64,000 nt of DNA. Source: Thermogutta terrifontis. Lineage in GTDB: Bacteria > Planctomycetota > Planctomycetia > Pirellulales > Thermoguttaceae. Within the stretch, counting starts at the first letter, position 1. Every line of letters begins with the position of its first letter. The notes below the pieces were generated by a model, which saw only the letters and a program-made list of their open reading frames with translations, ran no database searches and was not told the origin of the DNA. The stretch is from positions 620,001 to 684,000 of the forward strand of contig NZ_CP018477.1 in NCBI RefSeq assembly GCF_002277955.1, read 5' to 3'. A program made the translations under genes and the position numbers. Of the stretch, positions 40,617 through 44,435 are shown one piece after another.

Positions 40617-41423
40617 TTAGAAGTCTATTAGCGCTTGACCGCAATGGGGACAGCGCGATGGCGTCTTTTTCCGCCGCCGGCGTTGAATCTCCTCGGTAAA
40701 CCCGGCCCCCAGAATACCTGCCGGCAGCGCGAACATTCCGATTCCCAGAAGAGCCACAATCCCAGTGACAAATCTCCCCGGTCCCGTAACAGGATACACA
40801 TCCCCGTAACCGACAGTGGCGAGGGTAATGACAGCCCACCACATGGCAGTGGGAATATCAGGAAACTTGTCCGGCTGAGCCGGGTTTTCCACGTAGTACA
40901 CGATCGCTGCGGAGAATAGAACAAGCAGGAACATCACGCAAAAAGCCACGACGATCTCTTCTTTTTTCTCCCGGAATACAGCGACGAATATATCCACAGC
41001 AGCCGTATAACGCGCCAGCTTGATTGAGCGAAGTAATCGGAACAGTCGCAACAGCCGGAGCATTCGCAGGTCAATGTGCGAAGCCGGCAAAAATGCCGGC
41101 AGAATTGCAAAAAGGTCTATCAGCGCAAGGGGCGTCATGGCGAAACGGACCCGGCCCCAAATAAGAGAGTCATACTGAGGATTTGCGCGACACGACCATA
41201 ACCTCAATAAATATTCAACGGCGAATATAGACACTGAGAAATGCTCGAATAAAGAAAGCGCCCACCCCCAACGGTTGGCGATCCATTCGACGGTCTCGAT
41301 TACTGCGGCAAATACGTTGGTGAGAATGAGCGTGATAAGAAAAACATCACACCATTTACTGAGAGTATCACCTTCAGTAGCAGGCTCGAGGATTGTCCAA
41401 ATCCGTTCTCGCAGCGCATTCAT
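40617..41423 (-). CDS. Voltage-gated-type potassium channel subunit
   Basis: A 268-residue channel of the six-segment voltage-gated superfamily. S1-S3 lie at about 24-105. S4 has regularly spaced positive charges (RMLRLLRLFRLLRSIKLARY). S5 is followed by the pore with selectivity filter TVGYGD, then S6 (GIVALLGIGMFALPAGILGAGFTEEI). The C terminus is short and basic and ends in CPHCGQALIDF, half of a zinc-ribbon-like motif. It probably assembles as a tetramer selective for K+. It converges on the glycosidase gene, and the HNH protein gene is upstream on the same strand, 22 bases away. Confidence 0.93.
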   Translation of the reverse strand: MNALRERIWTILEPATEGDTLSKWCDVFLITLILTNVFAAVIETVEWIANRWGWALSLFEHFSVSIFAVEYLLRLWSCRANPQYDSLIWGRVRFAMTPLALIDLFAILPAFLPASHIDLRMLRLLRLFRLLRSIKLARYTAAVDIFVAVFREKKEEIVVAFCVMFLLVLFSAAIVYYVENPAQPDKFPDIPTAMWWAVITLATVGYGDVYPVTGPGRFVTGIVALLGIGMFALPAGILGAGFTEEIQRRRRKKTPSRCPHCGQALIDF

Positions 41424-41445: not shown

Positions 41446-42792
41446 CTAAATAGAATCGGACTTCTTCAGATTGCAGCGTCGGCAGAGCAGTTGCACATTA
41501 TTGTCAGAGTTGCTCCCACCTTTGGCTACCGGGATGATATGGTCAAATTCCAGATAGTCCGTCGCCCCGCACTCGGCGCATCGTCCACCATATCGCTGCC
41601 AAACACGCTGACGGACATCGCGTGGAATATATCTGCTGGTTTTCCCCTCGACTTTGGCCACCCGGGTTTGATTGGCCAGGCCCACCGCCGCAGTAAACAA
41701 TGGGTAGAAAAGGGGCGACGGTTGTAAGATGTCAAACCTATAAACGGGTTTGCCCTCCGTTTGGATCTCTAGCCAGTTGTCGCTGCCGCGATGAGAGATG
41801 ATTTTTCGATAATCCAGGGCCACTGTTTTTGTAGACGAGGAAAACAGAAGTCGGTGATCGGTGAGCGCCAAATTCCCATGATGCTGTTCCCAGGCAAGAT
41901 TACCACCACGGGTCCGCGGCAGGTGCCACACCGCTTGGGAGTAAAAATGGAGCAGTTCGCCAGCTCGCAACTGCAGTCCCGAAGGTGGAGAGAGGGTTGG
42001 AAGACGGCCATTTTCGATTTCCTCAAGCCTGCGAAGGATGTTGATCTCTTGCTCCAAGTACTTGCGATACTCGGCCGATAATCCCAGCTCTTCGACCAAC
42101 CACCTGAGGATTTTTTCTTCTTCGGGAGATAATCGTCCGTCGGCTTTGGCGTCGGCAAGCACATGTTCCACAAATCGTTGTGCGGAAAGTTGGATCGCTT
42201 GCTGGAGTTCCTGTTTGGTCAAACCGAACTTTTGTGTGATCCGAAGGAGATTCTCCCATTCCGCGGGGGAAAGCCGACCGTCAGCCACTGCCGCCATGAA
42301 CAGCCCACGCAGAAATGCCTCCGCATAATCGCGAAAGAACATGCGGGCGAATTGGGGAAGCGCGTATCCTACTGAGTGCGCGATTCGGGCTAATCGGGCC
42401 TCTTCCTCTGGGGACAAGATGCCATCCTCCATGGCCTCCCCAAGGGCAATAGCAAACCTGTTTCGCGCAAATTCGAGATGGATGTCTTTTGCTTTTGCTT
42501 CAGAAATCTCCAAACATTGCACGATTGACCGAAGGGCCTGCTGTTCTTTTTGTGTGACAACCTCATCGGCCCACGCTCGTTCTAGGACGTACCGGTAAAC
42601 GTTTTCCTTGGCAAGTTCCAGCTCATCAGGGTTAACGTCCCACCCCTGCAGCATGCTCGACACAGAAAATTTTTCTTGATTAGTCACGAGGCCGTGATAA
42701 AGCAGACGGGTCAACTCCTGAACCCTCTTTTCCCGATCGGGGTCAATCAGCTTTTGAACTGTTTTCTTGACCCACTCAGCGAGCTTTGCCAT
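41446..42792 (-). CDS. TerB-like repeat protein fused to an HNH nuclease domain
   Basis: A 448-residue protein. Residues about 1-250 are helical with repeated acidic segments of the form ADGRLSPEE (EDGILSPEEEARL, ADGRLSPAEWENL, ADGRLSPEEEKIL), as in TerB/DnaJ-associated folds. Residues about 275-375 look like a small beta domain (LALTDHRLLFSSSTKTVALDYRKI) of PH/GRAM type. The C-terminal HNH domain has Cys405, Cys408, His418, Cys437 and Cys440 around DHIIPVAKGG, with all expected metal and catalytic residues. AGGGG lies before the ATG. The combination suggests regulated DNA cleavage, possibly defence-related; that is inference. Confidence 0.82.
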   Translation of the reverse strand: MAKLAEWVKKTVQKLIDPDREKRVQELTRLLYHGLVTNQEKFSVSSMLQGWDVNPDELELAKENVYRYVLERAWADEVVTQKEQQALRSIVQCLEISEAKAKDIHLEFARNRFAIALGEAMEDGILSPEEEARLARIAHSVGYALPQFARMFFRDYAEAFLRGLFMAAVADGRLSPAEWENLLRITQKFGLTKQELQQAIQLSAQRFVEHVLADAKADGRLSPEEEKILRWLVEELGLSAEYRKYLEQEINILRRLEEIENGRLPTLSPPSGLQLRAGELLHFYSQAVWHLPRTRGGNLAWEQHHGNLALTDHRLLFSSSTKTVALDYRKIISHRGSDNWLEIQTEGKPVYRFDILQPSPLFYPLFTAAVGLANQTRVAKVEGKTSRYIPRDVRQRVWQRYGGRCAECGATDYLEFDHIIPVAKGGSNSDNNVQLLCRRCNLKKSDSI

Positions 42793-43130
42793 GATGATCC
42801 CCTTTGCTCGGTTACTACCACTCCTATCTGATCCTCGGGATTCCAGATACTGAATCCATATTCTCTAAAAACGTATTCGTGTGACAAGGTAGCAACGAGA
42901 AAGTTGCCCCCAGCCCGCATCATTATCGGTGTTCCGAGCGTCTCATGGAAGATTAGCCGTTTCGCTACCCTATTCACGGTTTTTTGCGGCACGAACGGCA
43001 CCGGCACCCCGGCACGGATTTGTGTGGAGATAATATGCAGCCCGCGGGCCTCTTCCGGAAGAACCTGTTTCGGAGGCATGTGCTTATCACGTCCTTTTTC
43101 CGGAGGGACCCACTTGTCAGGTCCGCCGTT
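42793..43130. other. Stretch upstream of the TerB/HNH gene
   Basis: Holds the start region of the TerB/HNH gene and, from about 43035, the first palindrome modules. A minus-strand ORF crosses it (to 42747), with a plausible-looking segment around GGNFLVATLSHEYVFREYGFSIWNPED. But its N-terminal half is repeat-derived, it has no ribosome-binding site and it overlaps the nuclease gene by 46 bases, so I do not call a gene. It may be the remnant of one. Confidence 0.4.
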
Positions 43131-43160
43131 CAATGTTTGATCATCCATTCCCGTTCGCCG

Positions 43161-43257
43161 GGGACTGAAGTCCTGCGGCGAAAGCGGGGCTAAAGCCCCG
43201 CACTCCATGGAGTGCGGCGATTTATCGCCGCTTTTTAGTGAAGGCTTTAGCCTTCAC
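43161..43257 (-). repeat. Composite cassette, reverse copy D
   Basis: The same five hairpins as copy A on the other strand: GGGACTGAAGTCC, GCGGGGCTAAAGCCCCGC, ACTCCATGGAGT, GCGGCGATTTATCGCCGC, GTGAAGGCTTTAGCCTTCAC. The second loop changed from ATGAAT-type to ATTTAT-type while the stem stayed intact. Confidence 0.92.
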
Positions 43258-43282
43258 AACCCTGCCGTTTGCGGCGTCGGAG

Positions 43283-43307
43283 GGACCTGCTTGTCAGGTC
43301 CTTTTTT
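43283..43307 (+). terminator. Terminator-like repeat module (unit 1)
   Basis: GGACCTG-CTTGT-CAGGTCC followed directly by six T. It has the form of an intrinsic terminator, but it lies in a repeat with no gene ending just before it on this strand. Confidence 0.5.
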
Positions 43308-43590
43308 CGGAGAGACCCGCTTGTCAGCCTGCGAGGTTCCACTCCAATCTACTCGGGTTTCGGTAGAGGCAATTCATGAATGGCCCCTACAGCGTCGGAA
43401 AAACCTGCTTGTCGGGTCCGATTAACACCGATTGATGACCTATCCCACCTCACCGGGCACGACGAGCGTGCCCCTCCGAAAACAGTCCGGAGGCACGTGC
43501 TTGTGACGTTCGCATTCGGACCAACCCCTTTCGGAGGGACCTGCTTGTCAGGTCCGCGTTCAATGTTTGATCATCCGTTCCCGTTCGCCG

Positions 43591-43687
43591 GGGACTGAAG
43601 TCCCCCGGGGAAAGCGGGGCTAAAGCCCCGCACTCCATGGAGTGCGGCGATTTATCGCCGCTTTTTGGTGAAGGCTTTAGCCTTCAC
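43591..43687 (-). repeat. Composite cassette, reverse copy E
   Basis: Second tandem copy, 430 bases after copy D, almost identical. A truncated third copy begins at 44022 and breaks off inside the ACTCCATGGAGT hairpin near 44068. Confidence 0.92.
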
Positions 43688-43712
43688 AACCTTGGCGTTT
43701 GCGGCGTCGGAG

Positions 43713-43737
43713 GGACCTGCTTGTCAGGTCCTTTTTT
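43713..43737 (+). terminator. Terminator-like repeat module (unit 2)
   Basis: Same hairpin and T6 tract as at 43283-43307, in the second tandem unit. Confidence 0.5.
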
Positions 43738-44435
43738 CGGAGAGACCCGCTTGTCAGCCTGCGAGGTTCCACTCCAATCTACTCGGGTTTCGGTAGGGGC
43801 AATTCATGAATTGCCCCTACAGCGTCGGAAAAACCTGCTTGTCGGGTCCGATTAACACCGATTGATGACCTATCCCACCTCACCGGGCACGACGGGCGTG
43901 CCCCTCCGAAAACAGTCCGGAGGGACGTGCTTGTCACGTTCGCATTCGGACCAACCCCTTCCGGAGGGACCTGCTTGTCAGGTCCGCCGTTCAATGTTTG
44001 ATCATCCGTTCCCGTTCGCCGGGGACTGAAGTCCCCCGGTGAAAGCGGGGCTAAAGCCCCGCACTCCATATGGAGAGTCCGCACTCCGCTGGTTAAACGG
44101 TAGAGGCAATTCATGAATGGCCCCTACAACACATTGAGCCTTTGGCCTGTCCCAGCTCCAAACGAAAACTGGGGATGCATCCTACGCCCACCTCATTGCA
44201 TGGCTGCGCCTCAGGCGTTATGCATAGGAATATTTCGCTTGCGTCTTGTGGGAAGATCGGAGGCCGGTGCCGTGGGTTCGGAAGTTGAAAAAAAGGGGGC
44301 GGGTGTCGCCAGATGTCTCGTGGACGAACTCGGAGACGTCGGCCATCGGGAAAACATCCATAACGCACACGCCGGTTATGTGGGCGTGAACGAATCCAGG
44401 TAGTGCTGGGAACTTGCAGCTCTGGGAGCGCCGCG

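What the first reader, a model, noticed from the sequence alone, without database searches (positions are those of the whole stretch)
41446..42792. TerB-like repeats, PH/GRAM-like domain and HNH nuclease in one protein
Three parts rarely seen together: an acidic helical TerB-like region that may sense metal or stress, a small beta domain and an intact HNH site. The fusion could be a new type of regulated nuclease, possibly anti-phage. The K+ channel gene follows at 22 bases on the same strand, which raises the chance of a joint membrane-damage or ion-signalling role.
Basis: partly seen in the sequence, partly recalled or inferred. Interest (0 to 1): 0.58.

Follow-up and report, generated by a model that had tools for sequence, protein, structure and literature searches.

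The report
Stress-sensor DNA-cutting enzyme, modular family
A bacterial gene fuses a repeated stress-sensor rod, a membrane-type docking domain and a DNA-cutting domain; relatives differ in the front sensor and some sit in restriction clusters or prophages, which suggests a controlled DNA-cutting weapon against invaders.

Summary
On the minus strand, 41446-42792 encodes 448 aa: four TerB-type repeats at a 47-48-residue period (Pfam TerB 6.8e-15), a predicted PH/GRAM fold (residues 268-380, VIA Z 11.5) and a complete HNH site. A 6-TM K+ channel starts 22 bases downstream and is the only Ion_trans_2 gene in this genome (Thermogutta terrifontis R1, by exact length). TerB-PH-HNH is a real but scattered family: 13 of 392 sampled Planctomycetota genomes match the TerB-PH profile, and forms exist in Deinococcus, Acinetobacter and another phylum. 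The core stays while the front differs: TerD, FHA, zinc ribbon, membrane helix or extra TerB. In Deinococcus radiophilus the TerD form heads a ter gene run; in D. radiodurans it does not. Several relatives adjoin restriction genes or lie in prophage-like contigs; I picked these neighbours by eye, without a control. The channel pairing recurs at 2 of about 45 other loci, one lacking HNH, with different channel subfamilies, and was not found beside the closest relatives. I read this as a Ter-type, signal-gated DNA nuclease, probably anti-invader; channel coupling is possible but weakly supported. No activity is shown.

The parts
41446..42792 (-). TerB-PH-HNH protein gene, 448 aa, ATG at 42792, stop TAG at 41448-41446
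   Evidence: ORF and translation; start supported by alignment with L003
42013..42741 (-). helical TerB-repeat rod, residues 18-260
   Evidence: Pfam TerB 6.8e-15 and DUF533 9.2e-8; profile A6 hits solved TerB 2ou3 (3.4e-5) and Tic110 4bm5 (3.1e-8); models
42544..42570 (-). first TerB-type loop, residues 75-83 (degenerate)
42403..42429 (-). second TerB-type loop EDGILSPEE, residues 122-130
42259..42285 (-). third TerB-type loop ADGRLSPAE, residues 170-178
42118..42144 (-). fourth TerB-type loop ADGRLSPEE, residues 217-225; D218 invariant in 18 of 18 aligned rows
41653..41991 (-). PH/GRAM-fold domain, residues 268-380
   Evidence: AlphaFold2 model and VIA-align Z up to 11.5
41449..41622 (-). 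C-terminal HNH nuclease domain, residues 391-448
   Evidence: Pfam HNH 405-446, 1.4e-13; conserved residues
41424..41445 (-). 22-base gap between nuclease stop and channel start; no terminator-like site listed in it
40617..41423 (-). 6-TM voltage-gated-type K+ channel gene, 268 aa, TVGYGD filter; the only Ion_trans_2 match in the genome

Best explanation
A signal-gated DNA endonuclease of the Ter type. Shown: four TerB-type repeats, a predicted PH/GRAM fold and an intact HNH site in one chain; the core recurs in scattered genomes with differing front domains. Inferred: the TerB rod (and in relatives the TerD, FHA, zinc-ribbon or membrane part) receives a stress or infection signal; the PH domain docks the protein to a membrane or a partner; release or oligomerisation lets the HNH domain cut DNA, either of the invader or of the cell (abortive infection). 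The K+ channel downstream is probably co-transcribed in this genome (inferred from the 22-base gap) and may belong to the same response, but is not a required partner of the family.
For: Domain evidence. Same core with differing N-termini: TerD 5.8e-29, 2.6e-26, 1.6e-35 and 3.4e-32 in four of ten relatives scanned, FHA 2.8e-11 in one; hydrophobic N-terminal stretch in 7 of 41 listed loci. HNH motif matched by the script's pattern in 37 of 41. Patchy spread: 13 of 392, 30 of 397 and 4 of 201 genomes. Neighbours picked by eye and then scanned: HsdS, YhcG nuclease, HsdR and YgjP directly upstream of L006; HsdS, HsdR, Mrr_cat and integrase at L049; Z1 plus C5 methylase, with holin and amidase about 4.7 kb on, at L046; N6_Mtase about 3.5 kb from L003; NACHT at L226; HSDR_N at L139; phage lysozyme and P22_AR_N genes around L241. 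Head of a ter gene run in D. radiophilus.
Against: In the window the scanned neighbours are a channel, a glycosidase, a histidine kinase and a sugar transporter, not defence genes. Many relatives have ordinary-looking neighbours (by eye), and some scanned neighbours matched no family (L221:7122-8261, L224:7715-9013; L003:7459-8589; L228:8021-8815). Defence neighbours were not counted against controls; L045-L050 come from a virus collection, so mobile contexts are expected there. PADLOC matches only the TerB part (PDC-S48 8.7e-20) and HNH parts. 0 of 193 matching phage records cover 80% of the protein. HNH confidence in the model is only moderate (10-residue blocks 54-84 from residue 381 on). 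No activity is shown.
Confidence: 0.5

Rival explanations
1. A stress-response DNA-processing enzyme (metal, redox or radiation damage) of the Ter network, not a defence against invaders.
For: TerD-fused relatives in Deinococcus radiodurans and D. radiophilus, the latter heading TerD, vWA, TerD, TerD and DUF475 genes, with ATP-grasp, phosphoribosyltransferase and HAD genes on the other side. A vWA gene (6.9e-10) and a kinase-like gene follow the relative in L008, and a kinase-like gene lies 1.6 kb from L009; both kinase matches (7e-5, 8.9e-5) are under Pfam's cut-off. TerB and TerZ/TerD genes of D. radiodurans stand in a table of PMC1978522 on radiation resistance (passage seen).
Against: TerD is absent from this genome. 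The D. radiodurans copy has no other annotated ter gene within 14 kb. That same table gives no D. geothermalis counterpart for the TerB and TerD genes shown. Prophage and restriction neighbours in other relatives fit defence better. The two readings overlap, since Ter systems themselves are described as phage resistance in PMC7824862 (passage seen).
Confidence: 0.28
2. A two-part membrane system: the K+ channel and the PH-docked nuclease act together as dual effectors or as sensor and effector.
For: 22-base spacing; the only Ion_trans_2 gene in the genome; channel next to the TerB-PH-HNH gene in L139 and next to a TerB-PH protein in L148; both genes not found in the three other genomes of the genus.
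Against: The window's channel is closest (48-51%) to channels L177, L163, L178, L180 and L169, and L148's channel is 54-69% identical to many others, all without a TerB-PH neighbour in the short flanks held, so the pairs probably arose separately. Of 30 channel loci fetched, only the three known ones have a TerB-PH neighbour; one more (L160) has a neighbour that looked TerB-like by eye, but no profile supports it. For HNH-bearing loci alone chance is 0.037.
Confidence: 0.12
3. An HNH gene of a selfish mobile element (homing type) with TerB and PH as passengers.
For: The HNH part resembles phage HNH families (phrog_6050 3.1e-19) and, below the cut-off, IscB-type HNH; patchy spread.
Against: The TerB-PH-HNH order is kept across phyla, D218 and the zinc cysteines are invariant in 18 of 18 aligned rows, and one relative heads a ter gene run.
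Confidence: 0.06
4. A decayed or inactive nuclease kept as a binding protein.
For: In one genus (L140, L142, L144) the PH part is missing and the catalytic D-H is replaced; L138 and L231 are split into two overlapping frames.
Against: The window copy and 36 other loci of the 41 keep the motif.
Confidence: 0.04

Closest known systems
TerD-TerB-PH-HNH proteins of Deinococcus (D. radiodurans WP_162177623.1, D. radiophilus WP_126352148.1, annotated 'TerD family protein')
   Same: Last TerB repeats, PH-like part and HNH align along residues 161-448 at 33-35% identity
   Different: They carry an N-terminal TerD domain and a zinc-ribbon-like stretch (by eye) instead of the long TerB rod; their own TerB matches are under Pfam's cut-off; D. 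radiophilus has a ter gene run alongside
TerB family (PF05099), e.g. solved protein 2ou3
   Same: Sequence match above the curated cut-off; profile match 3.4e-5
   Different: Here four repeats in an extended rod, nearest in sequence profile to Tic110 (4bm5, 3.1e-8), fused to PH and HNH
Shango / Bunzi anti-phage systems (TerB-bearing)
   Same: Contain TerB; Shango blocks phages (PMC10250203, passages seen; TerB listed for both in PMC10952713, passage seen)
   Different: Shango is TerB with helicase and ATPase genes; none is among the scanned neighbours of the window gene. Bunzi was not compared
HNH nucleases of defence systems (type II REases, Septu PtuB)
   Same: Weak HNH matches (PADLOC REase_II 3.9e-6, PtuB 5.9e-4)
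   Different: Match confined to the HNH part; no partner ATPase or methylase among the scanned window neighbours
PH-GRAM domains (Lam6, MTMR2)
   Same: Predicted fold, Z 11.4-11.5 over 96-101 residues
   Different: 14-16% identity; no lipid-binding evidence

Membership tests
HNH endonuclease (PF01844) | Profile match above curated cut-off | tested here: met
   51.2 bits against 21.4
HNH endonuclease (PF01844) | Catalytic D/H, N and zinc cysteines present | tested here: met
   D417 H418 N432 N441, C405 C408 C437 C440; roles recalled
HNH endonuclease (PF01844) | Metal-dependent DNA cleavage | not testable with these tools
   needs an assay
TerB family (PF05099) | Profile match above curated cut-off | tested here: met
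   55.8 bits against 24.4, three stretches
TerB family (PF05099) | TerB fold by structure comparison | tested here: inconclusive
   No TerB chain among the 50 rows shown; best Z 7.6 with helical proteins; sequence profile does hit 2ou3
PH/GRAM domain | Seven-strand barrel with C-terminal helix | tested here: met
   Model; Z 11.5 and 11.4
bacterial PH Pfam models (bPH_3 etc.) | Profile match above curated cut-off | tested here: not met
   None in this protein; in relatives only weak matches, bPH_3 0.0029 in L046 (18.5 bits against 23) and Vps36_ESCRT-II 0.0039 in L147
Ter operon system | TerD gene in the genome | tested here: not met
   0 PF02342 matches in G000; control rings in 2 of 14 genomes
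PADLOC candidate PDC-S48 | Whole-protein match | tested here: not met
   Best stretch only residues 113-204 of the protein, profile 231-317 of 411
Shango | TerB, helicase and ATPase genes together | tested here: not met
   Scanned neighbours are channel, glycosidase, histidine kinase, sugar transporter
Voltage-gated-type K+ channel (neighbour) | Ion_trans domain and TVGYGD filter | tested here: met
   6.7e-30; sequence

The most novel reading that the evidence does not exclude
A dual-effector defence cassette: the channel collapses or senses membrane potential and the PH-docked nuclease cuts DNA, so that membrane damage is converted into DNA cleavage; TerB-PH proteins have recruited K+ channels of different subfamilies at least three separate times.
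Probability: 0.12. Interest if true: 0.78.

Novelty: new variant of a known kind. Interest (0 to 1): 0.48.

Why it matters
If right, this is a family in which one nuclease core is joined to different sensors (TerD, FHA, membrane helix, zinc ribbon, TerB rod). That would give the Ter stress network a direct DNA-cutting output that can be tested in one protein, in Deinococcus laboratory strains and in planctomycetes.

Tried and rejected
Conserved two-gene system with the channel: rejected as a family rule. No channel in the fetched flanks of the closest relatives; only L139 and L148 have it.

Phage records: tblastn gave 193 of 50,697 records; the 40 listed rows match mainly the HNH end, and none of the 193 covers 80%. 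Plasmids: 63 of 72,556; among the 40 listed rows only the two Deinococcus records cover TerB and PH (161-448).

TerB fold by structure search: Foldseek had no match at E 0.001 or better and VIA-align none with Z of 8 or more for the TerB rod alone; absence from the list is not evidence against TerB.

Clean empty site: flanking genes are found in same-genus drafts but on broken or rearranged contigs, so no empty site could be shown.

Defence-neighbour statistics: I drew lists of 127 of 161 neighbour ORFs and 127 of 181 control ORFs but did not run the scan, because one restriction protein may match many PADLOC models and flood a 25-row tally.

Rows dropped: L138, L231 (split frames), L140, L141, L145 and L219 before the tree; L142, L144, L232 and L229 as near relatives before the counts. 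The '45 other loci' are the 40 HNH loci plus L146, L148, L149, L234 and L237 without HNH; L149 and L234 match only the TerB part of the profile, several loci come from one genus, and some lack complete flanks, so the chance figures are rough. The base-rate sample of 12 genomes includes the three with linked channels; leaving those channels out gives 0.034 and 0.0007.

Literature: the Ter network paper (10.1039/c2mb25239b) is not held; what it says of TerB-HNH fusions is unknown to me beyond citing papers. In the listings I saw no paper on this fusion; I read passages of PMC7824862, PMC10250203, PMC10952713, PMC1978522 and PMC4012209. The held library is partial.

Full report
What is there. The finding's coordinates hold one open frame on the minus strand, 41446-42792, 448 residues. 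The genome is a single contig of 4,810,751 bases; a passage of PMC5673643 gives that exact length for Thermogutta terrifontis R1. Pfam places TerB (6.8e-15, three stretches) and DUF533 on the helical part and HNH (1.4e-13) at the end. The four TerB-type loops start at residues 75, 122, 170 and 217, a regular 47-48-residue period. The start codon agrees with the nearest relative, L003 (54% identity).

Structure. AlphaFold2 with 15 sequences gives mean pLDDT 86.1. Residues 268-380 form a PH-type barrel; VIA-align scores 11.5 to Lam6 and 11.4 to MTMR2 over 96-101 residues. The TerB part alone gives a helical rod; structure searches with it are inconclusive, but the sequence profile reaches a solved TerB (2ou3, 3.4e-5) and Tic110 (4bm5, 3.1e-8). 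The HNH part is modelled with lower confidence (blocks 54-84 from residue 381 on) but carries all the expected residues.

The family. A protein search of one genome per species gave 11 loci: nine that run from a TerB repeat to HNH and two with HNH only. Of 71 virus-collection loci, six reach back into TerB and PH (L045-L050), L048 having the same coordinates as the Acinetobacter locus L010. A profile of the last TerB repeats plus PH, without HNH, matched 13 of 392 sampled Planctomycetota genomes (E up to 1e-5), 30 of 397 of the class (E up to 1e-8) and 4 of 201 of the phylum of L011. These counts include the query genomes and some forms without HNH or with TerB only. In a sample of 99 relatives 70 match, but only G000, G016, G072 and G075 well beyond the HNH part; the three other genomes of the same genus have only HNH-region matches. 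The HNH pattern is intact in 37 of 41 loci that I listed; of the four misses two are split frames, one (L235) is a length variant that looks complete, and one (L140) has lost the catalytic pair.

Differing fronts. Ten relatives were scanned: TerD precedes the core in four (two Deinococcus, L050, L235), an FHA domain in one (L236). A hydrophobic N-terminal stretch is found in 7 of 41. A tree of 35 cores splits the TerD/zinc-ribbon/FHA forms from the TerB-rod and membrane forms (98/99 support); with my own class labels all groups together need 7 changes (shuffled mean 15.0, 0 of 200 as low), but TerD alone is not clearly clustered (44 of 500 shuffles as low), and long branches make parts of it unsure. 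A constant nuclease end with a changing sensor end argues for a regulated nuclease.

Neighbourhoods. In D. radiophilus the TerD form starts a run of TerD, vWA, TerD, TerD and DUF475 genes, with ATP-grasp, phosphoribosyltransferase and HAD genes on the other side; the D. radiodurans copy has no other annotated ter gene within 14 kb. In L008 a vWA and a kinase-like gene follow, and a kinase-like gene lies near L009 (kinase matches under the cut-off), like the TerY-phosphatase-kinase sets that I recall from the Ter literature. L006 sits directly behind HsdS, YhcG, HsdR and YgjP; L049 lies by HsdS, HsdR, an Mrr-type nuclease and an integrase; L046 lies by a Z1 protein and a C5 methylase, with a holin and an amidase about 4.7 kb on; L226 is followed by a NACHT protein; L139 has an HSDR_N protein two genes on; the Acinetobacter locus L241 lies between a lysozyme-bearing phage protein and an antirepressor gene. 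I chose these proteins by eye from the flanks, did not scan all flanks, and have no control count. Many other loci have ordinary-looking neighbours, and so has the window.

The channel. P0002 is a 6-TM K+ channel (Ion_trans 6.7e-30, TVGYGD). It is the only Ion_trans_2 match in this genome; 12 genomes hold 31. Channels of this broad type occur in 125 of 392 sampled Planctomycetota. One lies next to a TerB-PH-HNH gene in L139 (169 bases downstream, same strand) and one next to a TerB-PH protein without HNH in L148. Against the base rate, two among 45 other loci has a chance of about 0.0009, but one among 40 HNH-bearing loci 0.037; not every locus has complete flanks and not all are independent, so these are rough. 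Of 30 channel loci fetched, three have a TerB-PH neighbour, and these are the three already known; L160 has a neighbour that looked TerB-like by eye but matches neither my TerB profile nor Pfam. The window's channel is closest (48-51%) to five channels without a TerB-PH neighbour in the flanks held, L148's is 54-69% identical to many others, and L139's differs from both. In the three same-genus genomes neither gene is found although neighbouring genes are, so the pair seems to come or go together; the drafts are 87-97% complete.

How it most likely works. Shown: the domains, their order, conservation and the spread of the family. Inferred: the front part senses a signal, the PH domain docks, the HNH domain cuts DNA. 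Ter proteins are described as possible signal sensors in a phage- and chemical-resistance network in PMC7824862 (passage seen), and a TerB-bearing system, Shango, blocks phages (PMC10250203, passages seen). Anti-invader and stress-repair readings cannot be separated with the present evidence; I lean to the first because of the restriction and prophage settings.

Novelty. No searched library names the whole architecture: Pfam, NCBIfam, PADLOC and PHROGs match only parts. The key Ter review is not held, so the fusion may already be listed there. I rate it a new variant of a known kind.

Noticed in passing
window 43070-44128: Two to three copies of a 430-base direct repeat with strong palindromes upstream of the nuclease gene; one same-genus draft (G001) gave 137 matches to the searched DNA, most of those listed falling on this stretch, so a dispersed repeat family.
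   Followed up: partly
L141:7931-10782 and L143:9393-12257: In two planctomycetes of one genus the TerB-PH-HNH gene is followed at 11-12 bases by a 501-aa protein that itself carries a TerB domain; a possible two-gene system.
   Followed up: partly
L140, L142, L144: A genus keeps a shorter version without the PH part and with the catalytic D-H replaced, with neighbouring genes that look alike: a nuclease turned inactive but retained. L232 is from the same genus and was not looked at residue by residue.
   Followed up: no
L046:4791-12541: Prophage-like contig with TerB-PH-HNH, Z1 protein and C5 methylase between a NUMOD3/HNH gene and a holin-amidase pair: looks like a prophage-borne defence island.
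   Followed up: partly
L228:9087-11375: TerB-PH-HNH followed at 30 bases by an EcsC-family gene.
   Followed up: no
L003:10744-11574: A second, different HNH protein lies 3.4 kb from the TerB-PH-HNH gene.
   Followed up: no
L148:8790-11461: K+ channel, TerB-PH protein without HNH, and an FRG-domain gene side by side.
   Followed up: no
L221:2991-4184: A SMEK-domain gene lies about 1.1 kb from the TerB-PH-HNH gene.
   Followed up: no
window 40617-40670: The channel ends in a short CPHC zinc-ribbon-like tail that the two other TerB-linked channels lack.
   Followed up: no
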